A DNA stretch of 64,000 nt from assembly GCA_015062445.1 (NCBI GenBank), contig SUUQ01000006.1, forward strand, positions 1-64,000, written 5' to 3'. This stretch comes from Alphaproteobacteria bacterium (GTDB lineage Bacteria > Pseudomonadota > Alphaproteobacteria > Rs-D84). The notes beneath the pieces are model-generated. The model worked only from the letters and a program-made list of their open reading frames with translations, made no database searches and had not been told where the DNA came from. Both the position numbers and the translations under genes were made by a program. Each line of letters opens with the position of its first letter. Within the stretch, counting starts at the first letter, position 1. Positions 31,505 to 43,238 of the stretch are shown in pieces.

Positions 31505-31870
31505 CCTGTCATTACCGGGCGAAATCGTGGCAATCCAGCCCTCTCCCATCGCTGTCATACCGGCGCAGGCCGGTATCCATTGTGTTTTTTCCCCCACTCA
31601 TGTCATCCCGTAGCAATCCAGTAAATAGAAACCACACAAAAAAATCCCCCACCCTCTCATGTCATCCCGTGGCTGGACCACGGGACCCAGGTATATGCTT
31701 TTTTTTACTTCGTCACCAAACACAAAATAACAAATATAAAAATTTGTCATCCCGTGGCTTGACCACGGGACCCAGGTGTATGCCTTTTTCTTACTTCAAC
31801 ACCAAACACAAAAACAACAAATATAAAAACTTGTCATCCCGTGGCTTGACCACGGGACCCAGGTGTTATC
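31505..31870. repeat. Cluster of palindromic repeats, left block
   Basis: This gene-free stretch holds one GTCATACCGGCGCAGGCCGGT element (31554-31582). It also holds three GTCATCCCGTGGCTTGACC elements (31660-31697, 31745-31782, 31832-31866), each ending CCACGGGACCCAGGT. Degenerate pieces lie at 31507-31540 and 31606-31623. The two types share GTCAT plus a palindrome and resemble the palindromic elements known from Rickettsia and Wolbachia. AT-rich spacers (ACAAATATAAAAA) separate the copies. Confidence 0.85.
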
Positions 31871-32179
31871 TTATAACAAATTATTCAAATCTTCGTACAA
31901 ATCTCGCCATAATGGATTATATTTTTCAATTAAGTCTTTTTTCCAGTTTCTTTTCCAATCCTTCAACCTTTTCTCACGACGAATTGCATCATTCGCATTA
32001 TCATGTCGTTCAAAATAAACCAATTTATCCACATTATATCTATCCGTAAACCCCGGCAACAAATGATTTTTATGCTCGAAAATACGTTGAGGCAAATTAC
32101 TGGTAACCCCAATATACAGTGTCCCGTTTCTAGAACTGGCCATAATATACACATAGTAATATTTTTGTTCAAATCTCAT
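31871..32179 (-). CDS. Single-domain GIY-YIG endonuclease
   Basis: The product (102 residues from the ATG at 32177-32179) is a stand-alone GIY-YIG nuclease of the small YhbQ-like type: YYVYIMASSRNGTLYIGVTS, then LPQRIFEHK (catalytic Arg) and YFERHDNANDAIRREKRLKDW (metal-binding Glu). The gene lies between two inverted copies of the GTCATCCCGTGG palindrome (31832-31866 and 32193-32227), with CCCAGGTG/CACCTGGG facing it at both ends. A few codons upstream of this ATG are encoded by the right palindrome and could be an alternative start (32194). The arrangement looks like a small mobile unit. Confidence 0.9.
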   Translation of the reverse strand: MRFEQKYYYVYIMASSRNGTLYIGVTSNLPQRIFEHKNHLLPGFTDRYNVDKLVYFERHDNANDAIRREKRLKDWKRNWKKDLIEKYNPLWRDLYEDLNNLL

Positions 32180-32192
32180 AAAACAATGGTAC

Positions 32193-32227
32193 ATCACCTG
32201 GGTTCCGTGGTCAAGCCACGGAATGAC
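32193..32227. repeat. Inverted palindrome at the GIY-YIG 5' side
   Basis: CACCTGGGTTCCGTGG-tcaag-CCACGGAATGAC is the reverse of the element at 31832-31866, so the nuclease gene is bracketed by inverted copies. The change CCCGTGG to TTCCGTGG is matched in the other arm (CCACGGAA). Confidence 0.85.
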
Positions 32228-32273
32228 AAAACACTTAACACACTTTATAAAACATAATTATCACCCAGAACTC

Positions 32274-32628
32274 CGTCATACCGGCATCGGGCCACCCACC
32301 CTCGTCATACCGGCGGCGGCCGGTATCCATTGCAACCTGTATATTCAAATTTCAGTGTCTCTATTCCCCTCTGCACAGGGGGTTACCCGCAGGCCGGGGG
32401 CGGCACACAGGGCGGAGGGGTCTCAATCCCACCCTCGTCATACCGGCATCGGGCCACCCACCCTCGTCATACCGGCGGCGGCCGGTATCCATTGCAACCT
32501 GTATATTCAAATTTCAGTGTCCCTATTCCCCTCTGCACATGGGGGTTACCCGCAGGCCGGGGGCGGCACACAGGGCGGAGGGGTCTCAATCCTACCCCCG
32601 TCATACCGGCGCAGGCCGGTATCCATTG
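32274..32628. repeat. 162-bp tandem repeat carrying CCGGC palindromes
   Basis: Two units start at 32274 and 32436, and a third, truncated one at 32599. Each begins CGTCATACCGGCATCGGGCC, then has a complete GTCATACCGGCGGCGGCC palindrome (32303-32332, 32465-32494) and a GC-rich stretch ending GGCGGAGGGGTCTCAATCC. The units differ by only a few bases. No credible gene lies here; open frames on the plus strand are repeat-encoded. Confidence 0.85.
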
Positions 32629-32649
32629 TGTTTTTTTCCCATCCTCTCA

Positions 32650-33000
32650 TGTCATCCCGTGGCTTGCCTTGTCGCACGAAGTTTTAACGAAGTGTGAACC
32701 ACGGGACCCAGGTGTATGCCTTTTTTTACCTCAACCACATAATTGGCAAGGTCTCCCCACCCTCTCATGTCATCCCGTGGCTTAACCACGGAATGACAAA
32801 ACACTTAACACATTTTATAAAACATAATTATCACCCATAACATCGTCATACCGGCATCGGGCCACCCACACATCGTCATACCGGCGCAGGCCGGTATCCA
32901 TTGCGTTCTGAACAATCCATAAAAAACAGAAAAAAAAACTTGTCATCCCGTGGCTTGACCACGGGACCCAGGTGTATGCCTTTTTTCTTACTTCAACACC
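32650..33000. repeat. Cluster of palindromic repeats, right block
   Basis: There are GTCATCCCGTGG elements at 32650-32718 (with 30 extra bases inserted in its loop), 32768-32798 and 32941-32978. GTCATACCGGC elements lie at 32844-32867 (half) and 32874-32903. The segment AAACACTTAACACA...AATTATCACCC beside the GIY-YIG gene (32229-32266) recurs at 32799-32836, so a block of about 90 bp has been duplicated. Confidence 0.8.
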
Positions 33001-33004
33001 AAAC

Positions 33005-33033
33005 TAAAAAAATCCCCCAAACAGGGGGAAATT
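33005..33033 (-). terminator. Intrinsic terminator of the first coiled-coil gene
   Basis: TCCCCC-aaaca-GGGGGA (33013-33029) is followed on the minus strand by a T-run. It lies three bases beyond the stop codon at 33037. Confidence 0.85.
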
Positions 33034-33036
33034 AAA

Positions 33037-34071
33037 CTATTGAACCCAAATACTGGCCAATGTAGTCGACGTTTCAGACCCAGACGGCACCTTGCCGATC
33101 ACACCACTGGTCTTGTCGGCGGTCACCGCACCACCAGCGATGTCTGCTGTTGCAATTGTTCCGTCTGTAATATCCGCAGATGCAACCGCACTCTTGGTTG
33201 CCAAACTGCCCAACGTTGTCCCCTTCGTAACAGTAACCGTGCCATTAGCTGCTGTAACCGCTGTAACAACATTACCTGTTCCATCTGTCACGACATTCGT
33301 TGTTGTCAATGTCGCCTGTTTTCCTGAAATCGTTGTCGCATAACCGTCATATGCAGAAACCTTGTCTGCGTTAATCCCCGAATTGACCGCCGCCAATTGG
33401 GCTGCTGTCAGTGTTGCTTGTTTGCCCTTCAATGCATTATCAATATCCGTCAACGCATCTCCAATTTCACTGGCGGAATCTGAAATCATTGTCTGTGTCA
33501 ATTGAACCGTTGGCACAACACTGTCCTGACCATCAATTGGTGCTTCATTCACAATAACCGCATCATCAACCTTAGCATCTAATGCAGCCGCCAAAACCTT
33601 GTTCTGAACTGGATTAGTACTGCTTGCACTTAACGATGTATCAACGGTTATCTGTGGTACTGTTGCACTGATTGTACCATTATCGATTGTAATATTTGAC
33701 CCTGCTGTCAACTTATCCTGTTTACCCGCCAACGCAGCATTTGCAGCATCAGCAGCCGTCTGTGCATCACCTGCTGCTGCGACAGCAGTGTCTGCTGAAC
33801 TTTTTGCAGAAACTGCATATGCACCCGCTGCTGCAGCATGTGCTTCGGCGGCAATTGCTGCGGTGCCTGCCCTGTTCACTGCACGATTAACATATGTCAC
33901 ACCTGCGATACCTGCACCTGCACCATTTTCATCTGTTGGGGCCAAATCTGTAAATACACTATGTGCACTGCCAATATCGGTATTATCTGACTTTGGTGCA
34001 CTGGCAACTGCTGCACTTGCAGCAAACATAGCACAGAATGATACAGCAAAAACAAATTTTGTCTTACTCAT
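33037..34071 (-). CDS. Secreted Ala-rich coiled-coil protein 1
   Basis: The 344-residue protein has the signal peptide MSKTKFVFAVSFCAMFAASA. A short segment (VFTDLAPTDENGAGAG) is followed by long Ala/Thr/Asp-rich sequence with coiled-coil stretches and phage-fibre-like blocks (LTAGSNITIDNGTISATVPQ, GKQATLTAAQLAAVNSGINA). It ends TLASIWVQ, a short Trp-containing tail shared in type with its neighbours. It probably forms an extended surface or periplasmic fibre; no membrane anchor is seen. The start at 34069-34071 follows GGGGG. Confidence 0.8.
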   Translation of the reverse strand: MSKTKFVFAVSFCAMFAASAAVASAPKSDNTDIGSAHSVFTDLAPTDENGAGAGIAGVTYVNRAVNRAGTAAIAAEAHAAAAGAYAVSAKSSADTAVAAAGDAQTAADAANAALAGKQDKLTAGSNITIDNGTISATVPQITVDTSLSASSTNPVQNKVLAAALDAKVDDAVIVNEAPIDGQDSVVPTVQLTQTMISDSASEIGDALTDIDNALKGKQATLTAAQLAAVNSGINADKVSAYDGYATTISGKQATLTTTNVVTDGTGNVVTAVTAANGTVTVTKGTTLGSLATKSAVASADITDGTIATADIAGGAVTADKTSGVIGKVPSGSETSTTLASIWVQ

Positions 34072-34268
34072 ATTTTCCCCCACGGTGTTTTCTCTATTAT
34101 TCTCTCTCTTTTATGCTTTTACGCATTATACACTATATCGCCCACTTAACACAACAGTTAATATAACACATATTGTAAAAATCCATAAAATTTTTATAAT
34201 ATGGCGTGCTTTGTTTATCCTGGCGGGACAACAAATGCCCCACCAGTTTAAACATACTTACGATTTCA

Positions 34269-35246
34269 TTAATACGAAACCTTTTCCCACTGCATTGTAC
34301 CACTACGGATAACCAATGCACAATCAGATGTACCTTGTGCACATGCGGTTGGGAATGTCGCCAGACTTGTCAAAGTGCCCTGCAAGTCCTGAACCTTGCC
34401 ATCTGCATATGCCTTCAGTGTCGTATCCTGCGATGACTGTGATGCTGCCAATTCATCCGCATCGATATAAATCTCTGCTGCTTCTGCTGCTGCTGCAATC
34501 GCTTCAGATTTTGCAGTTGCAACATTGCCTGTTGTCGCCATATCGGTCGTTGCAGTTGCAATGGCCTGATTCATCTCTGTTGTTGTTGAATAATCTTCCA
34601 ATGCTGTTGCAATCTTGCCATCTGCCGCAGTACCTGCTGCTGTGATTGCATCTGCTTCTGCCTGGTCCGCATATGCTTTGGCATCAGTTAATGCCTGTGC
34701 TGCACTACCCTTAGAATCAGATGCTGCAATCGCTTCTGATTTTGCGGTTGCGGCTACACCGTCTGCATATGTTTTTGCCGCCTGTAAATTATCTGTATCT
34801 GCCTGTGCCAAATCATCCAAACTTTCAGTAATATCAGTCAAGTCATCCGAGATTTCCGACTTCGAATTTGCAATCGCATTTTCCATTCTGAAAATGGATG
34901 GTGCAACTTTATCTAAATCAGCATCTGCGACAGTCGCCCCGTCTGCAGCAATTGCATCCTGCTGCAATGCTGTTGCACCGGCTGCTGCGCCACTGCGGAT
35001 TGTTGCCAGGTCACCAATTGTATCCTGCTTTGTCGCCAAACCTTGTTCCAATGCTGTTTTTGTTGCTGCTGCCTGAACACCTGTATTCAGTTCATTAACA
35101 GCCGCTGTCAAGTTTGATTTTGCTGTTGTTGTCAATGTGCTAATATCACCAGTTTTTCCTTCCAAATATTCAACAGATGCGATTTCTGCATTTGCCGCCG
35201 TTACGGCCATCATCGCAACCAAAGACGCTGTAATAATTTTTTTCAT
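34269..35246 (-). CDS. Secreted Ala-rich coiled-coil protein 2
   Basis: The 325-residue protein has the signal peptide MKKIITASLVAMMAVTAANA and then EIASVEYLEGKTGDIS. The middle is almost all Ala, Asp, Thr and Lys with heptad character (AKSEAIAASDSKGSAAQALT). The C-terminus is CAQGTSDCALVIRSGTMQWE, a Cys pair followed by a Trp strand, as in proteins 3 and 4. An AAAGGA site precedes the ATG. The likely role is a surface-exposed coiled-coil fibre, by inference. Confidence 0.8.
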   Translation of the reverse strand: MKKIITASLVAMMAVTAANAEIASVEYLEGKTGDISTLTTTAKSNLTAAVNELNTGVQAAATKTALEQGLATKQDTIGDLATIRSGAAAGATALQQDAIAADGATVADADLDKVAPSIFRMENAIANSKSEISDDLTDITESLDDLAQADTDNLQAAKTYADGVAATAKSEAIAASDSKGSAAQALTDAKAYADQAEADAITAAGTAADGKIATALEDYSTTTEMNQAIATATTDMATTGNVATAKSEAIAAAAEAAEIYIDADELAASQSSQDTTLKAYADGKVQDLQGTLTSLATFPTACAQGTSDCALVIRSGTMQWEKVSY

Positions 35247-35338
35247 TTTTCTTTCCTTTCTTTCTTAATCTTTCCGTTTGCAGGGAAGATAAATCCCCAC
35301 AAACAGATTATTCTATATTGTTATTTACCTGCTTTTTT

Positions 35339-36640
35339 TTAGAACCCTGTTTCACCAGTTGCACGTTCAATCACTTCCCATGTGTATGCAGAATTATTAA
35401 ATGTCAACACACACTTGTTTGTTGGGTTTGAACATGGACCCTGTGGCTTTGGTATCGCCGCATTTGCTGTTGCCTGGGCCGCTGCCGCATCTGCTACCCC
35501 CTTGTCCGCCTGGGTCTGCGCCGCATCTGCTGCTGACTGGGCTGCTGCTGCATCTGCCAATGCCTGGTTTGCATCTGCCTGTGCTGCATCTGCTGCTGAC
35601 TGGGCTGCATCTGCCGCCGCCTGCGCTGCTTCTGCTGCAGACTGTGCATTTGCTACTGCCGTATCATTTGACGATTTGTATGCATCCAAATCTGCCTGGG
35701 CATCATCACCGGCTTTCTTTGCCGCTGCAACCGCTGCATTATTTGTTGTTTTATAGCTGGCCAAATCATTTGCAACCTGTGTTGCACTGCCACTGGCTGT
35801 TGCAATCTGACCTTCTAAATCTGTTTTCAGGGCCGTATCTTTTTCATCGGCATATGCCTTGGCATCTGCCAATGCCTGATTTGCCTTGTTTGTTGCATCT
35901 GTTGCCGCCGCCGCAATGGCTTCTGATTTTGCAGTTGCTGCACTGCCGGCTGTATCATAGTTTGTTGCCAAACCATCTGCATAGGCCTTGGCATCTGTCA
36001 ATGCCTGATTTGCCTTGGATGTTGCATCTGCTGCCGCCGCCTCAATGGCTTCTGATTTTGCAGTTGCTGCACTGCCGGCTGCATCATAGTTGTCTGCCAA
36101 ACCATCTGCATAGGCCTTGGCATCTGTCAGAACCTGTGTATCTGCTGCCTTGTACGCCGCATCCATAGCAGAAATCGCATCTGCATTATCACCAATCAGC
36201 CCACGAAGCTCGGCATCGTCATATGTCGCACTAGACTGGGCATCTGCAATCATTTGAACAACGGTCTTACCTTCTGCAACTGCACCAATTTTGTCGTTAA
36301 TCGCACTATCAGCAGTTTCAAATGCAGTTTTTTGTGCCGCATCTAAACCATCTGCATAGTCTTTTGCCGCCTGTAAATTTGTTGTATCGGCCTGTGCCAA
36401 TTCTGCAACCTTTGTATCATAAGCTGTCTGTGCAACTTTGGCATTAATTTTGCCTTCTAATTCTGACTTTGCAGTACTTAATGCATTTGCAGCTGTTGCT
36501 TCTGCTGCGGATTGTGCGGCCGATGCCTCGGTTGCTGCCTTGGCATCAACGTATGCCTTGGATGCAACGGCTGCATTTGCTGCATTGACGGAAACCAAAC
36601 CCATCAAAACTGTAAAAATACCTGCTGTTAATTTTTTCAT
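35339..36640 (-). CDS. Secreted Ala-rich coiled-coil protein 3
   Basis: The 433-residue protein has the signal peptide MKKLTAGIFTVLMGLVSVNA and then ASKAYVDAKAATEASAAQSA. It has repeats of about 43 residues starting QALTDAKAYADGL, and the module KAGDDAQADLDAYKSSNDTA, which also occurs in protein 4. It ends CSNPTNKCVLTFNNSAYTWE. I chose the start at 36638-36640 because GGAAGGGAG precedes it; the longer reading lacks a signal peptide at its N-terminus. Confidence 0.8.
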   Translation of the reverse strand: MKKLTAGIFTVLMGLVSVNAANAAVASKAYVDAKAATEASAAQSAAEATAANALSTAKSELEGKINAKVAQTAYDTKVAELAQADTTNLQAAKDYADGLDAAQKTAFETADSAINDKIGAVAEGKTVVQMIADAQSSATYDDAELRGLIGDNADAISAMDAAYKAADTQVLTDAKAYADGLADNYDAAGSAATAKSEAIEAAAADATSKANQALTDAKAYADGLATNYDTAGSAATAKSEAIAAAATDATNKANQALADAKAYADEKDTALKTDLEGQIATASGSATQVANDLASYKTTNNAAVAAAKKAGDDAQADLDAYKSSNDTAVANAQSAAEAAQAAADAAQSAADAAQADANQALADAAAAQSAADAAQTQADKGVADAAAAQATANAAIPKPQGPCSNPTNKCVLTFNNSAYTWEVIERATGETGF

Positions 36641-36676
36641 GTCTCCCTTCCTTTTTTTTAGGTTATCCCATTTTAT

Positions 36677-36710
36677 CATTTTTTGCCTAGGTTGGTAAAG
36701 GCAAAAAATG
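36677..36710. promoter_or_regulatory. Perfect inverted repeat upstream of coiled-coil gene 3
   Basis: CATTTTTTGCC and GGCAAAAAATG (11-bp arms) are 12 bases apart, about 40 bases before the start at 36640. The absence of a T-run on the minus strand argues against a terminator; an operator is possible. A weak TAAAAT -10 box overlaps its downstream edge. Confidence 0.5.
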
Positions 36711-36753
36711 AATATTTTGGGATTTTTTTATTAATTTCATTAATCCAATGTTA

Positions 36754-38217
36754 TTAGTTTAAATAATCATTAACAGGTTCAGTCAATGGCACCCATGAAA
36801 TTGTATTTGTGGCCTTGTTAATTGACAGAACACAGTCCTGTGTTTCGCATGCTGCTGGTGCACTAATCTTTTTTGCCAACTCTGTTTCAATTTCAGATTT
36901 TGCACTCGCCAAAGCAGTGGCCGCTGTTTGTTCTGCCGCCGCCTGTGCTGCATTTGCCTTGGATGTTGCATCTGTTGCCGCTTCAGACTTTGCTGTTGCA
37001 ATCTGACCTTCTAAATCAGATTTCAGTGCTGCATCTTTGCCATCCGCATATGTTTTTGCATCTGTCAATGCCTGGGCTGCCGCTGCCGCTGCTGCATCCG
37101 CTGCATCCTGGGCTGCATCAGCCGCAGATTTTGCCGTGGCTGCGTCTGCTACACCCTGTTCAGCAGTTGTTTTTACACCCGCCAACGCTGTATCATTTGA
37201 CGATTTGTATGCATCCAAATCTGCCTGGGCATCATCACCAGCTTTCTGGGCTGCTGCTACCGCTGCATTATTTGACGTTTTGTATGAATTCAAATCTGCC
37301 TGGGCATCATCACCGGCTTTCTTTGCCGCTGCAATTTCACTTGAATTTGATGTCTTGAACAAATTCATTTCATCTTCCGACACATAATTTGAATCCATCG
37401 CCGCAATCGCTTCGGTATTTGACTTAACCGCACCATTTGCCAATTCATCTGTGTATGCCTTGGCATCTGTCAATGCATCTGCTGCACTGCCGGCTGCATC
37501 ATAGTTGTCTGCCAAACCATCTGCATATGACTTTGCTGCTGCTTCTGCCGCATCCGCTTCACTTTCTGCATATGACTTTGCTGCTGCTTCTGCCGCATCC
37601 GCTTCGCTTTCTGCATATGTCTTAGCTGCTGCTAATGCCGCATCTGCACTGCCGGCTGAATCATAGTTGACTGCCAAACCATCTGCATACGATTTTGCAG
37701 ACTGCAATGTTGTTGCATCCGCTCCTGCAAAATCTGTTCTGATTTGTGCGTCTGCCGCTTCACGTGCATCTTTTTCTGCACTGACCGCTGATGCAATTTG
37801 ATCTGCGACACCTGTTTCACCCGTCAAAGCTTTAACCGCATCAATCTGTGATTGCAAACTGGTATCAGTATTACCCAAAGCGGTCATTTTTTCGTTATAC
37901 ACTGTCAGGTCAACCTTTTTCGCCAATTCTGTATCAACATAATCTTTACCTGCCTTGGTCGCCAATGTTCCAGACACAGTTGTCAATGTACTTGCATTTG
38001 TCGCAATTGACTGTGCATTTGTTGCAATATCTGCTGTGTTTTTGTTTACTTTTGCATCATTTTCTGCTTTATATTCATTCAATGCAGTTGTAACTGAACC
38101 AGATTTTGCATCGACATAGTCCTTGGATGCGACATTAATTGCCGCATCTGCTGCCCCTGTGGCACCCATCAAGATTGCCGCCATAAAGCCAGAAAACATA
38201 ATATTTTTTACTTTCAT
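36754..38217 (-). CDS. Secreted Ala-rich coiled-coil protein 4
   Basis: The 487-residue protein has the signal peptide MKVKNIMFSGFMAAILMGAT (cleavage near ADA), nearly the same as that of protein 5. After SKDYVDAKSGSVTTALNEYK comes Ala/Asp/Lys-rich coiled coil with short repeats such as AAEAAAKSYAESEAD, and two copies of the KAGDDAQADL module. The end is CETQDCVLSINKATNTISWV. A 50-bp stretch (37190-37239) is identical to one in gene 3, which points to recent exchange between the genes. Confidence 0.8.
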   Translation of the reverse strand: MKVKNIMFSGFMAAILMGATGAADAAINVASKDYVDAKSGSVTTALNEYKAENDAKVNKNTADIATNAQSIATNASTLTTVSGTLATKAGKDYVDTELAKKVDLTVYNEKMTALGNTDTSLQSQIDAVKALTGETGVADQIASAVSAEKDAREAADAQIRTDFAGADATTLQSAKSYADGLAVNYDSAGSADAALAAAKTYAESEADAAEAAAKSYAESEADAAEAAAKSYADGLADNYDAAGSAADALTDAKAYTDELANGAVKSNTEAIAAMDSNYVSEDEMNLFKTSNSSEIAAAKKAGDDAQADLNSYKTSNNAAVAAAQKAGDDAQADLDAYKSSNDTALAGVKTTAEQGVADAATAKSAADAAQDAADAAAAAAAQALTDAKTYADGKDAALKSDLEGQIATAKSEAATDATSKANAAQAAAEQTAATALASAKSEIETELAKKISAPAACETQDCVLSINKATNTISWVPLTEPVNDYLN

Positions 38218-38285
38218 TTTTTTTCCTTTCTTTCGTTAATTATGCCTGGCCCATTATGGCGGGTTTTGGCATGGTTAGCTTATTA

Positions 38286-39683
38286 TTATAAACTTTCACC
38301 TGTGATTATATCTGTTGTACCGTCACCGTTAACAACCGCAACCTGATTCAGTGTGATATTCCCGAAACCGTCAGAAATCACCAGATATCCACCCTTGGTT
38401 GTCAGAATGCCTGATGCACTGACAAAGTCCCCATCTTCGATCATTCCCTGCAAGGTTTCATCTGCCTGTTCACGTGCCGTTGCTTCATCTGCAATTGCCT
38501 GGGCATTTGTTGAAATCTTGCCATCCAGGGTTGTGTCTGCTGCTTTATATGCATCTTCTAATGCTTTATCTGCCGCTGCAAATTCACTACGGATTGTTGT
38601 GTCTGCCGCCTGCAGGTCATCAATTTCACCTTCGGCTGTTGCAACACGTGTTGTCAGCGCACCCAAGTTAGTAGAAGTTCCAGACAAAGACTGATTCAAT
38701 TCTGCAATTTCATCGTCTGTGTATTTTTTTGCATCTGTCAAAACCTTGGCATCTGCCTGTTCGCGTGCACTTGCTTCTGCTGTGATTTTGCCATCCAATG
38801 CTGTATCTGCTGCTGCAAAGTCGCTACGAATTGTTGTATCTGCCGCCACCAGGTCTGCAATATCTTCTGCCATTGCTGTGTCTGCATTTTCACGTGCAGT
38901 TGCTTCTGCAGAAATCAAACCACGAACTGCGGTATCATCATATGTTGCCGCCGTCTGTGCATCAGCAATCATATCTACAACCGTCTTACCTTCTGCAACG
39001 GTACCGATTTTATTGCTAATTGCTGTGTCCGCAGCTTCACGTGCACTTGCTTCTGCTGTGATTTTGCCATCTAATGCTGTATCAGCCGCAGCAAAGTCGC
39101 TACGAATTGTTGTATCTGCCGCCACCAGGTCTGCAATATCTTCTGCCATTGCTGTGTCTGCATTTTCACGTGCGGTTGCTTCTGCAGAAATCAAACCACG
39201 AACTGCGGTATCATCATATGTTGCCGCCGTCTGTGCATCAGCAATCATATCTACAACCGTCTTACCATCTGCAACGGTACCGATTTTATTGCTAATTGCT
39301 GTGTCCGCTGCTTCACGTGCACTTGCTTCTGCTGTGATTTTGCCATCTAATGCTGTATCTGCCGCCGCAAAGTCAGTTCTGATTTGTGCATCCGCCTGTG
39401 CACGTGCACTTGCTTCTGCATCAATCTTGCCCTGCAGTGCCTGGTCTGCCGCCTGCATATCTGTGGTTGTTGCAAAAGGCGTCAAATCCAATGTGCTTTT
39501 AACAACATTGTTTGTGATGTCGATACCTGTACCTGCAGACAAGTTATCCTGTTTTTTTGCCAATTCAGTATCAACATACGACTTGCTGGTCAGTTCATAC
39601 TGCACGGCTGCATCGGCTGCACCGCATACACCAGCAAAGATTGCCGCTGCAAATCCTGAAAACATAATGTTTTTCACTTTCAT
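38286..39683 (-). CDS. Secreted coiled-coil protein 5 with 92-residue repeats
   Basis: The 465-residue protein has the signal peptide MKVKNIMFSGFAAAIFAGVC. It carries two and a half near-identical 92-residue repeats (ITAEASAREAADTAISNKIG, then MIADAQTAATYDDTAVRGLI) with strong heptad character, like the stalks of trimeric adhesins or phage fibres. The C-terminus lacks the Cys pair and ends NGDGTTDIITGESL. The start at 39681-39683 follows a GGAAGGAAAA-type site; the longer reading would bury the signal peptide. Confidence 0.8.
   Translation of the reverse strand: MKVKNIMFSGFAAAIFAGVCGAADAAVQYELTSKSYVDTELAKKQDNLSAGTGIDITNNVVKSTLDLTPFATTTDMQAADQALQGKIDAEASARAQADAQIRTDFAAADTALDGKITAEASAREAADTAISNKIGTVADGKTVVDMIADAQTAATYDDTAVRGLISAEATARENADTAMAEDIADLVAADTTIRSDFAAADTALDGKITAEASAREAADTAISNKIGTVAEGKTVVDMIADAQTAATYDDTAVRGLISAEATARENADTAMAEDIADLVAADTTIRSDFAAADTALDGKITAEASAREQADAKVLTDAKKYTDDEIAELNQSLSGTSTNLGALTTRVATAEGEIDDLQAADTTIRSEFAAADKALEDAYKAADTTLDGKISTNAQAIADEATAREQADETLQGMIEDGDFVSASGILTTKGGYLVISDGFGNITLNQVAVVNGDGTTDIITGESL
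38790..39390. repeat. 276-bp in-gene tandem repeat
   Basis: Within coiled-coil gene 5, segments starting near 38798 and 39074 are almost identical over 276 bp, with a further half unit to the right. The period is a multiple of three, so the repeat number can change without shifting the frame. Confidence 0.85.
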
Positions 39684-39732
39684 TTTTTCCTTCCTTTCTT
39701 TCGTTAAATTATCGCGGTTTAACAACCGAATT

Positions 39733-41880
39733 TTATTGACCTTCGACAACACTTACGGTTACCCAAGTCGCCTTATCCCCTTCTGATTTCAACATGGCCA
39801 TTGTACCATCTGGCAGTTGCATATTTATAAAGTCTGCTTCAACCTTATCTTTATATGCCAACGCACCCAAAGTTGCCAATTCTGCATCAATACCACTGAT
39901 TGCTTCGATTACCTGTTGCATTGCTGTATCAGTAGCATAATCTGCTGCAATTTCTTCAACCTTGCTTTGCAGTTCTTTCACAGTCGCATCAGACGCAGTG
40001 CTGCCACTTAATTCAGTAACCACATCTTGCAAATCCTTCAAATCAGCTGCCGCTGCATAATCACCGGCCGCCTGTTTTGTTGCAATCGCCGCATCCAGGG
40101 TTGACTTAACCGAATTTAACTGTTCTGTCGTAACCAAATTTGTCGGCACATCTTCCAAATCATTATAAGAACCAGTTTTTGCAACTTCATGCAACGTCAA
40201 CAATTCTGCCGCATTTTCATTTGCCAAATTCTGGGCCGCATCTGCCACAGACTTTGCCGTCGCCGCATCTGCCACCCCTTTGTCTGCCTGGGCTTGCGCT
40301 GCTGCTGCCGCCGCCGCTGCTGCTGCCGCCGAATTTGCCGCAGTTGCCGCATCCGCTACACCTTTGTCTGCCTGCGCCAAAACTTCTGCAACCTCAGCAT
40401 CATTCAACAACTTATATTCATCCAAGGCACCCGCCACAGTCGCCGCATCCGCCACACCTTTATCCGCCTGGGATTGTGCTGCTGCTGCTGCCGCCGCCGC
40501 TGCTGCAATTGCCTTGCCTGTTGCACCATCTGCACTTAATGCTGTTTCTAATGCAGAAATCTTACCATCTTGTACATCCTGTTCACCTTCAATTGCTGTG
40601 ATTTTCCCCTCAGCCGTATCAACGCGCCCTGTCAACGCAGACAAATCCGCCGTTGCACCACCCAAAGAACCTGTCAAATCTGCAATTTCCGCATCCGTAT
40701 ACTGCTTTGATTCTGCCAATGCCGCCGCCGCAGAACCCGCCGCATCATAATTTCCTGCCAAACCATCTGCATAATCCTTGGCCGACTGCAATGTTGTTGC
40801 ATCTGCCGCCGCAAACCCCGCCTTGATTTCAGCATCTGCTGCTTTATACGCCACATCCATGGCCGCAACTTTATCGTCTAATGCCTTGTCCGCATTTTCA
40901 CGCAGAACAGCTTCGGCCGCAATCAACCCCTCTAATTCATCAATCGAGGCCTGCAAAGCCGTCTGTGCTGCTGTCAATTCGGTTTTTTTCGCATAATCAT
41001 CTTCTATAACCTTTACACGATTAACCAGTGCCGTCAGATCCGCACCTGTTGCCGAACTGCCCTGCAATGCTACAACATCACTCTTCAAAGTTTCCAAATC
41101 AGCCGCCGCCGCATATTCACCAGCCGCCTGTTTGCCTGCAATTTCCTGTTCTAACGCGGTCTTCAAATCATTTAATGCAACTTTGGTCGCAAAATCACCC
41201 AAATCACCAGTCACATCATTCAATGCCGCCTGCAAGGCATCAAATTCTGTCTTGCCCGCAAAATCTTTCGCCAAATCATATGTCTTTGTCACATCATCCT
41301 GAACAACGGTTAAAACCTTGTTTGCATACTCTACACTCGTATGCTCACCACTGACCGCTTCTATATCCGCCGCCAACTTATCAACATTCAACTTCAGATC
41401 TGACGCATCTTTTTCCAACGCATCAACAGACGCATTCAAATCTTCGAACTGTGCCGGAATATTGCTATCAGAATTTTCCTGATACCCCATCCACTGTTCC
41501 AAAACCTCGATACGGGTCTGCAAATTACCACTTGTCGAACTGTTATTAATTACCGTTTTATCTGGCGCACTGGACGTTGCCAAATACTTACCAATCGACA
41601 AACGTGGTGTTGCCGCCACACGTGATGCCGCCGTACGCGTTGCCGCCGCACGCGTTGAACCATCTGACGACGCCCCCAAACGCATTGCCCCCGCACGCAC
41701 CGCATTCGCTGCTGTGGACGTTGTCGTTCCCGACTTTGCTGTCGCCGCACTGGACGTGCCAGAATATGTACCTGCACCACCCAATGAACGTACCGCTGTC
41801 GCACCATTTGCCGGTGCAACAATCGCCGCACACAGCACACACACTATTGATAATGTTGATATTTTCAGTTCGTTTTTCAT
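39733..41880 (-). CDS. Secreted Ala-rich coiled-coil protein 6 (largest)
   Basis: The 715-residue protein has the signal peptide MKNELKISTLSIVCVLCAAI with a probable cut after NGA. A Ser/Thr/Arg/Ala-rich N-terminal region (about 30-100) is followed by long coiled coils, with islands of AAAAAAAAQ and QADKGVADAAT. It ends MAMLKSEGDKATWVTVSVVE, without the Cys pair. It is the first gene of the run 6-5-4-3-2-1 on the minus strand. The low-complexity N-terminal region could lie in or cross the envelope, but no anchor is obvious. Confidence 0.8.
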   Translation of the reverse strand: MKNELKISTLSIVCVLCAAIVAPANGATAVRSLGGAGTYSGTSSAATAKSGTTTSTAANAVRAGAMRLGASSDGSTRAAATRTAASRVAATPRLSIGKYLATSSAPDKTVINNSSTSGNLQTRIEVLEQWMGYQENSDSNIPAQFEDLNASVDALEKDASDLKLNVDKLAADIEAVSGEHTSVEYANKVLTVVQDDVTKTYDLAKDFAGKTEFDALQAALNDVTGDLGDFATKVALNDLKTALEQEIAGKQAAGEYAAAADLETLKSDVVALQGSSATGADLTALVNRVKVIEDDYAKKTELTAAQTALQASIDELEGLIAAEAVLRENADKALDDKVAAMDVAYKAADAEIKAGFAAADATTLQSAKDYADGLAGNYDAAGSAAAALAESKQYTDAEIADLTGSLGGATADLSALTGRVDTAEGKITAIEGEQDVQDGKISALETALSADGATGKAIAAAAAAAAAAQSQADKGVADAATVAGALDEYKLLNDAEVAEVLAQADKGVADAATAANSAAAAAAAAAAAQAQADKGVADAATAKSVADAAQNLANENAAELLTLHEVAKTGSYNDLEDVPTNLVTTEQLNSVKSTLDAAIATKQAAGDYAAAADLKDLQDVVTELSGSTASDATVKELQSKVEEIAADYATDTAMQQVIEAISGIDAELATLGALAYKDKVEADFINMQLPDGTMAMLKSEGDKATWVTVSVVEGQ

Positions 41881-41971: not shown

Positions 41972-42688
41972 TTAGAACTCGTACCGCAATCCGATTGAAA
42001 TCGAATTATCCAGGATTAAACCAACCTTGTTTGAAATATCATATTCATCATACGGTGGTTCAACATACTGAAATGAACGATTATGTTCTGGCCCAACCAG
42101 TGCTGACAAGCGATACCGCAAATCCAACCACAGGTTATAATCCAACTTATGTGCATAGCCGAACATCAGCGCCCCCATCGGCGACACACCACGCTCGCTG
42201 TCGTCACCACCGACAAAATCTGCACCATACCACTTCACTGTTGGCAACGCGATACCAGCACCTGCCCCAACATAAAAGCCATTTGCAAAATCATAGTACG
42301 CATTTGCGATTACATATGGGATAGTCAACTTGAACGTTGTACCAACATCATCATGTTCATGTGAACCAATCAGCCCACCTTCAACTTCTGCACGCCAGAA
42401 ATAATCCAAACGATATCCCGCAAACAGACCGCCCCCAAAGACAACCTCTGTATACGATTCATTATCCAACATTTCACTGTTTGGCGCATCAGTATCATAT
42501 TCATTTTCCCAATTCAGCAAACTCAAACTGGCACGTCCACCGATATACCACCCTGACTTTTCTTTTTCATAATAATCATAGTTAACAGTATAACCACCAT
42601 CATTATTACGAACCAAATGACTTGGTGCTGCATTTACTGCTGTGGCTGTTACGGCCGCCAACACTGCCACTGACAAAATTTTTTTCAT
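41972..42688 (-). CDS. Outer-membrane beta-barrel protein 3
   Basis: The 238-residue protein has the signal peptide MKKILSVAVLAAVTATAVNA and a barrel of the OmpA-like/OMP_b-brl type: GWYIGGRASLSLLNWE, YTEVVFGGGLFAGYRLDYFW, NGFYVGAGAGIALP and LWLDLRYRLSALVG, ending SIGLRYEF with the C-terminal Phe. It differs from the two barrels at 18-20 kb. Function could be structural or a porin. A GGAGGG site lies before the ATG and a good promoter is 25 bases further up. Confidence 0.88.
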   Translation of the reverse strand: MKKILSVAVLAAVTATAVNAAPSHLVRNNDGGYTVNYDYYEKEKSGWYIGGRASLSLLNWENEYDTDAPNSEMLDNESYTEVVFGGGLFAGYRLDYFWRAEVEGGLIGSHEHDDVGTTFKLTIPYVIANAYYDFANGFYVGAGAGIALPTVKWYGADFVGGDDSERGVSPMGALMFGYAHKLDYNLWLDLRYRLSALVGPEHNRSFQYVEPPYDEYDISNKVGLILDNSISIGLRYEF

Positions 42689-42712: not shown

Positions 42713-42741
42713 AGTATACCATAAAATTAATCAGTTTCCAA
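42713..42741 (-). promoter_or_regulatory. Promoter of outer-membrane protein 3
   Basis: On the minus strand TTGGAA (42736-42741) and TATACT (42713-42718) are 17 bases apart, about 25 bases before the start codon at 42688. Confidence 0.65.
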
Positions 42742-42833: not shown

Positions 42834-43238
42834 ATGAAAAAAATCATCTTAGCATTGGCAACTCTGGCAATTGCCGCCTGCGCACACGCACCAAAAGAAC
42901 TTGACGGCCAACACGCATTTTTTGAATTCGATTCGGCCGTTATCACACCTGCCGCCCGTGACAGTCTACAGGGCCAGGCATTATACATGAAGAAAAACCC
43001 TGACATCAAAATTACCCTGCAGGGTCGTTGTGACGAACGTGGCTCGACCGATTACAACCTGGCCTTGGGTGCGCTGCGTGCCGGCAATGCTGCCCACGTC
43101 ATGATTCACGAAGGCATCGAACCAGAACGCATCAAAACAATTTCATACGGCAAAGAAAACCCAATCTATCCTGGAACCGGCGAAGAAGTTTGGGCCAAAA
43201 ACCGTAACACAACAACAGTTGTTCGCAAAACAAAGTAA
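42834..43238 (+). CDS. pal: Peptidoglycan-associated lipoprotein Pal
   Basis: Pal anchors the outer membrane to peptidoglycan and works with Tol proteins at the division site. The 134-residue precursor has a lipobox (LAIAAC, Cys near 16) and an OmpA-type peptidoglycan-binding domain. The blocks are HAFFEFDSAVITPAARDSL, LQGRCDERGSTDYNLALGAL, RAGNAAHVMIHEGI and SYGKENPI. tolB is 4 kb away and convergent in orientation; the rest of tolQRA is not in the window. Confidence 0.95.
   Translation: MKKIILALATLAIAACAHAPKELDGQHAFFEFDSAVITPAARDSLQGQALYMKKNPDIKITLQGRCDERGSTDYNLALGALRAGNAAHVMIHEGIEPERIKTISYGKENPIYPGTGEEVWAKNRNTTTVVRKTK

What the first reader, a model, noticed from the sequence alone, without database searches (positions are those of the whole stretch)
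33037..41880. Six-gene array of secreted Ala-rich coiled-coil proteins
Six consecutive genes encode signal-peptide proteins of 325-715 residues dominated by Ala, Asp, Lys and Thr heptads. Three end in Cys-x4-6-Cys followed by a Trp strand (CAQGTSDC, CSNPTNKC, CETQDC) and others in a Trp tail. None has a membrane anchor. They could form a surface layer or fibre system with no described counterpart that I can name.
Basis: partly seen in the sequence, partly recalled or inferred. Interest (0 to 1): 0.72.

Follow-up and report, generated by a model that had tools for sequence, protein, structure and literature searches.

The report
Gut bacterium's operon of fibre proteins
A tiny-genome gut bacterium devotes one operon to a small outer-membrane barrel plus six long exported proteins with conserved ends and fast-changing shafts; they look like rod-shaped, probably trimeric fibres and are found only in its own bacterial family, which suggests an undescribed way of touching partner cells or the host.

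Summary
Six consecutive minus-strand genes (33037-41880) encode signal-peptide proteins of 325-715 aa with no other membrane segment, lipobox or LPXTG motif. Corrections: protein A is not heptad-patterned, E has no Trp, and A, C and E start slightly later. The genome belongs to Candidatus Enterousia (order Rs-D84, ~1 Mb genomes). The genes follow a 238-aa outer-membrane barrel gene, probably as one operon. The order barrel-F-(E)-D-C-(B)-A recurs at one syntenic site across the genus with 3-6 fibre genes. Signal peptides, N-termini ('ASKxYVD') and C-terminal hairpins (C-x4-7-C-[AV]-L...W) are conserved; the shafts are nearly saturated and vary about two-fold in length. In held loci all 40 barrel genes precede an F-type N-terminus. 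F relatives carry collagen-like tracts, which implies trimers. AlphaFold gives a confident helix plus beta-hairpin for the C-terminal cap. The window's six proteins match no Pfam or NCBIfam family above cut-off, only weak PHROG hits, and nothing in the PDB; YadA anchors are absent from this genome. Best reading: outer-membrane-linked trimeric fibres for contact. A surface layer is unsupported. Surface location, F-barrel binding and end-to-end joining are inferred.

The parts
41972..42688 (-). Outer-membrane beta-barrel gene (238 aa), first gene of the probable operon and partner of F
   Evidence: PF13505 OMP_b-brl 38.4 bits, cut-off 28.7; followed by an F-type N-terminus in 40 of 40 held loci
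39733..41880 (-). F: 715-aa rod protein; signal peptide, conserved N-terminus VRSLGG.GTY ... RLSIGKYL, coiled-coil shaft, C-terminal hairpin ending WVTVSVVEGQ
38286..39683 (-). E: 465 aa; signal peptide, SKSYVD N-terminus, near-identical 276-nt tandem repeat in the shaft, hairpin GGYLVISDGFGNITLNQVAVV without Cys or Trp
   Evidence: (family D14)
36754..38217 (-). D: 487 aa; signal peptide, ASKDYVD, coiled-coil shaft, cap CETQDCVLS..W
35339..36640 (-). C: 433 aa; signal peptide, ASKAYVD, coiled-coil shaft, cap CSNPTNKCVLTFNNSAYTWEVI
34269..35246 (-). B: 325 aa; signal peptide, coiled-coil shaft, cap CAQGTSDCALVIRSGTMQWEKV
33037..34071 (-). A: 344 aa, last gene; not heptad-patterned; C-terminus GKVPSGSETSTTLASIWVQ conserved in relatives
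33011..33033 (-). Terminator-like hairpin directly after A
   Evidence: consensus match only
42713..42741 (-). Promoter-like site before the barrel gene
   Evidence: consensus match only, 9 of 12 with TG before the second hexamer

Best explanation
The operon builds an envelope fibre system. Each protein is exported by Sec, folds as a long rod (mostly parallel trimeric coiled coil, in relatives also collagen triple helix) and is closed at its C-terminus by a small beta-hairpin cap, disulfide-pinned in B, C and D. F is the base subunit: its conserved N-terminus works with the co-encoded outer-membrane barrel, which holds the fibre at the outer membrane. The variable shafts and the last protein (A) reach away from the cell and touch a partner cell, a host surface or mucus. 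Shown: genes, gene order and synteny, conserved ends, variable shafts, barrel-F pairing in the genome, lineage restriction, and a predicted helix-plus-hairpin cap. Inferred: single transcript, trimers in the window's own proteins, surface location, F-barrel binding, adhesion.
For: Heptad pattern in B-F; AF2 cap of C helix plus hairpin, cap blocks pLDDT 87-89, full-length C almost all helix then hairpin though low confidence; collagen-like tracts in 10 of 27 F orthologs, Pfam Collagen 56.8 bits (cut-off 27.2) and Alanine_zipper 33.7 bits (cut-off 23.1) in the G174 F protein; PHROG tail-fibre matches in F relatives and crAss-type phage head-fibre matches in an A relative; exactly two Cys in the mature part of 84 of 84 capped proteins longer than 200 aa; ends conserved and shafts near shuffled identity; 40 of 40 barrels followed by F and 40 of 43 non-edge F preceded by a barrel; duplicate barrel+F loci and a minimal barrel+F/A locus; syntenic locus; partner-dependent lifestyle proposed for the order (PMC12306168).
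Against: No experiment. Only inner-membrane export is predicted; no route across the outer membrane is tied to the array. The window's own F has no collagen tract and A is not coiled coil. Full-length AF2 of C has pLDDT 49, and no oligomer was predicted. No structural match. Many genomes of the order have no detected F. Collagen-like repeats match many families by composition.
Confidence: 0.5

Rival explanations
1. Each protein is an independent homotrimeric stalk; together they form a fuzzy coat or surface layer, with no shared fibre and no special role for the barrel.
For: Each protein has its own signal peptide and its own cap; gene number varies 3-6 between species; shaft lengths vary.
Against: F is specifically tied to the barrel gene; gene order is fixed with F first and A last; no lattice-forming or cell-wall-binding domain was found.
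Confidence: 0.22
2. They are periplasmic spacers or tethers between outer membrane and peptidoglycan, like very long relatives of alanine-zipper lipoproteins.
For: Sec signals without a demonstrated outer-membrane route; Alanine_zipper match in one ortholog; Pal-like and FtsEX-like genes next door.
Against: No lipobox and no peptidoglycan-binding domain; a helix of about 390 residues would be near 58 nm at 0.15 nm per residue, longer than a typical periplasm (general knowledge); shaft length varies about two-fold and sequence is near saturation, unlike a fixed-width spacer.
Confidence: 0.17
3. Remnant of a phage tail-fibre locus.
For: Stretches shared with phage fibre proteins in relatives.
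Against: Signal peptides on all six; fixed syntenic site between housekeeping genes; intact ORFs; no relatives in viral contigs.
Confidence: 0.04

Closest known systems
Trimeric autotransporter adhesins (YadA type, T5c)
   Same: Exported, rod-like coiled-coil shafts; YadA-anchored proteins of the same genus share shaft-like sequence (L017, L019)
   Different: No YadA anchor on any array protein and none in this genome; several short proteins plus a separate 238-aa barrel instead of one chain with its own anchor
Phage long tail fibres (T4 gp34-gp37) and other collagen-like or coiled-coil phage fibres
   Same: Trimeric rods encoded by neighbouring genes, proximal to distal (PMC3004832, PMC5537660); short matching modules in relatives of F and A
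   Different: Signal peptides, chromosomal syntenic locus, no phage genes, no homologue in viral contigs
Foldon-type C-terminal trimerisation hairpin (fibritin, Pfam Fibritin_C)
   Same: Coiled-coil helix followed by a Pro-containing linker and a Trp-bearing beta-hairpin; resemblance from memory, a lead only
   Different: No sequence or fold match found; extra C-x4-7-C loop
Alanine-zipper lipoproteins (Lpp/OprI type)
   Same: Ala-rich helix that trimerises; PF11839 above cut-off in one ortholog
   Different: No lipobox, far longer, hypervariable

Membership tests
Trimeric autotransporter adhesin (T5c) | C-terminal YadA anchor (PF03895) | tested here: not met
   absent from G000 although present in 15 of 34 same-genus genomes; no hit in the six proteins
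Trimeric autotransporter adhesin (T5c) | Trimeric coiled-coil stalk | tested here: inconclusive
   heptads in B-F; oligomer state not predicted or measured
Phage tail fibre | Phage structural gene neighbourhood | tested here: not met
   flanks are PlsC, YdcF, FtsX, FtsE, Pal, VTT, RbfA, LepA
Phage tail fibre | Sequence homology to tail-fibre families | tested here: inconclusive
   weak or marginal for window proteins; clear over short or repetitive stretches in relatives
Fibritin foldon (Fibritin_C) | Detectable sequence or fold similarity | tested here: not met
   no Pfam, PDB-sequence or Foldseek match; the domain is so short that these searches are weak
Lpp/alanine-zipper lipoprotein | Lipobox Cys at the signal peptide | tested here: not met
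   no lipobox in the six window proteins nor in 103 C, D, E, F family members
Surface-layer protein | SLH or other wall-binding domain, lattice formation | not testable with these tools
   no wall-binding domain found; lattice needs microscopy

The most novel reading that the evidence does not exclude
The array encodes one segmented fibre: F at the base on the outer-membrane barrel, E-D-C-B as trimeric segments joined cap to conserved N-terminus, and A as the tip, in gene order. Hints: F is first and A last in the loci where both are recognised. Neighbours fuse in order: F+E in G006, F+D in G147 and F+A as the only fibre gene in G064. Deletion between tandem genes would give such fusions anyway, so they do not prove it.
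Probability: 0.2. Interest if true: 0.82.

Novelty: new variant of a known kind. Interest (0 to 1): 0.62.

Why it matters
Enterousia and its order have ~1 Mb genomes, lack many biosynthetic pathways and are thought to live off other cells by unknown means; the published analysis mentions only unnamed hypothetical membrane proteins for contact (PMC12306168). This operon takes roughly 1% of such a genome, its base protein is found in most sampled genomes of the order's main family, and it evolves fast in its shafts while keeping its ends. It is a concrete, testable candidate for how these bacteria contact partners or hosts, and an outer-membrane fibre type without an autotransporter anchor.

Tried and rejected
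S-layer reading: no support found. YadA-type autotransporter: anchor tested and absent. Foldon membership: no sequence or fold match; kept as a lead only. Prophage origin of the locus: rejected by synteny, signal peptides and empty viral scans (one search gave only a marginal E=8e-3 match). Fusion order as proof of end-to-end assembly: considered but not counted, because deletions between tandem genes give the same pattern. A proximal-to-distal gradient of divergence was seen in one close pair (F 0.78, E 0.67, D 0.63, C 0.47), but over 29 pairs it is not a clean gradient, so it is not claimed. Intra-array exchange of shaft repeats: window shaft tiles match the nearest relative's array better than own paralogs in most tiles, so strong concerted evolution is not supported. 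Full-length AF2 of C gave only generic coiled-coil matches. Literature searches on anchorless trimeric fibres gave nothing relevant.

Full report
Observation. The six genes exist at the stated place. After choosing likely starts they are A 33037-34071 (344 aa), B 34269-35246 (325), C 35339-36640 (433), D 36754-38217 (487), E 38286-39683 (465) and F 39733-41880 (715). All carry Sec-type signal peptides, none has a second hydrophobic segment, a lipobox or LPXTG, and Ala+Asp+Lys+Thr make 47-57% of residues. Hydrophobic periodicity near 3.5 residues is far above shuffles for B-F (z 5.2-10.1, 0 of 200 shuffles) but not for A (z 1.0). E lacks Trp.

Organism. The window lies in a 1.05 Mb genome. A same-genus genome (G060, one contig, ~1.0 Mb) matches OX097180.1, Candidatus Enterousia intestinigallinarum, in length and in the coordinates of its hits, so the window is from Candidatus Enterousia, order Rs-D84. 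Relatives are gut metagenome genomes, many from ruminants. Published work describes the order as reduced-genome, probably partner-dependent bacteria and does not mention this operon in its main text (PMC12306168).

Locus. Immediately upstream of F (gap 91 nt) and on the same strand is a 238-aa outer-membrane beta-barrel gene (PF13505). A terminator-like hairpin follows A directly and a promoter-like site precedes the barrel gene; both are consensus matches only, so a single transcript is inferred. The order PlsC-YdcF-FtsX-FtsE-Pal <- | -> barrel-F-(E)-D-C-(B)-A | <- VTT, then RbfA and LepA, recurs in held loci from related genomes. In 20 complete, non-duplicate loci the array has 3-6 recognised genes, all on one strand between barrel and VTT; some divergent F genes are missed by the motif used there, so the lower counts are minimal.

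Conserved ends, variable shafts. Mean pairwise identity is 0.58-0.70 in the signal peptide and N-terminal region of C, D and F, 0.35-0.55 in their C-terminal region (0.60 in A), but 0.31-0.35 in their shafts, against 0.27-0.28 for shuffled shafts and 0.56-0.79 for flanking proteins. Lengths range from 276 to 552 aa in C and 372 to 917 in F. Between the window and its nearest held relative (barrel 87% identical) the ends of D and C are 87-97% identical and their shafts 63% and 47%. Ala-richness itself is partly a species trait: most relatives' array proteins have about 10-24% Ala.

C-terminal cap. In 25 aligned caps of B, C and D the two Cys and the Trp are invariant (the set was chosen by that motif, so the invariance describes the family and is not an independent test). 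Of 86 such proteins found, spacing is C-x6-C in 71 and C-x4-C in 12; all 84 longer than 200 aa have exactly two Cys in the mature part, so a single disulfide loop is likely. Some C relatives lack the Cys pair but keep the hairpin ('YVLTA...YKWELIER'), so the disulfide is not essential. E and F end in a similar hairpin without Cys. AF2 on the last 60 residues of C with 23 sequences gives a helix (2-21), a short turn and a hairpin (36-42, 45-52), with cap blocks at pLDDT 87-89. AF2 on full-length C is low confidence (pLDDT 49) but shows near-continuous helix then the same hairpin. Foldseek finds nothing significant for either model.

Trimer evidence. Ten of 27 F orthologs carry collagen-like tracts such as GPQGPQGEKGEPGE; the F protein of G174 exceeds the Pfam cut-off for Collagen and for Alanine_zipper. 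Collagen helices are trimers by established knowledge. The window's own F has no such tract, so trimers here are inferred by homology. Relatives' F and A proteins also match phage tail- and head-fibre proteins over short or repetitive stretches; window E has only a marginal phage match.

Barrel and F. The N-terminus of F (VRSLGGxGTY ... RLSIGKYL) is a family of its own: 136 of 201 genomes of the order, all in one family, and in a sample of 349 genomes of the phylum only the window genome and one same-genus genome. All 40 barrel genes in held loci are followed by it and 40 of 43 non-edge F genes follow a barrel. Two genomes have a second barrel plus short F pair elsewhere, and one (G064) has only the barrel plus a 198-aa protein with F's N-terminus and A's C-terminus. 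This argues that the two act together; physical binding is inferred.

Cap distribution. The Cys-Cys-Trp cap occurs in 94 of 201 genomes of the order, all in the same family; three weak, short hits appear among 289 genomes of the class.

Comparison. No Pfam or NCBIfam family passes its curated cut-off on the window's six proteins, PHROG matches are weak, and no PDB sequence matches significantly. YadA anchors exist in 15 of 34 same-genus genomes but not in this genome. TolC-type channels, one secretin beside a TcpQ gene, and autotransporters are present, so export routes exist but none is tied to the array.

Verdict. Most likely an outer-membrane-linked trimeric fibre system for contact (0.5). 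Rivals: independent stalks or coat (0.22), periplasmic spacers (0.17), phage remnant (0.04). The segmented single-fibre reading, a special case of the first, is open (0.2).

Noticed in passing
window 31666-32966: Six copies (up to 3 mismatches) of the palindrome CCCGTGGCTTGACCACGGGA, all in the 1.5 kb gap between the VTT gene and the array terminator; none expected by chance in the whole window.
   Followed up: partly
window 31871-32197: A 108-aa ORF that by eye resembles a GIY-YIG nuclease domain (YVYIMASSRNGTLYIGVT) sits among those palindromes; not tested against a library.
   Followed up: no
L125 and L126 (G134, G147): Second barrel plus short F-like protein (199-266 aa) ending ...VPTQPLP, next to a protein with repeats like CSGLTSIPADLFAGISGAPA.
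   Followed up: partly
L017, L019, L042, L043: Same-genus genomes encode proteins with a YadA-type C-terminal anchor that share shaft-like sequence with the array; absent from the window genome.
   Followed up: partly
L124 5404-8028 (G000:C9): A TcpQ-domain gene followed by a secretin gene, the only secretin found in this genome.
   Followed up: partly
L131 6971-7833 (G174): A second F-type gene inside the array, after C, with a long collagen-like tract running to the contig end.
   Followed up: partly
window 42834-43238: A short (134 aa) Pal-like OmpA-domain protein scoring just below the Pal cut-off (112 vs 125 bits), divergent from the array and followed by FtsE/FtsX-like genes.
   Followed up: no
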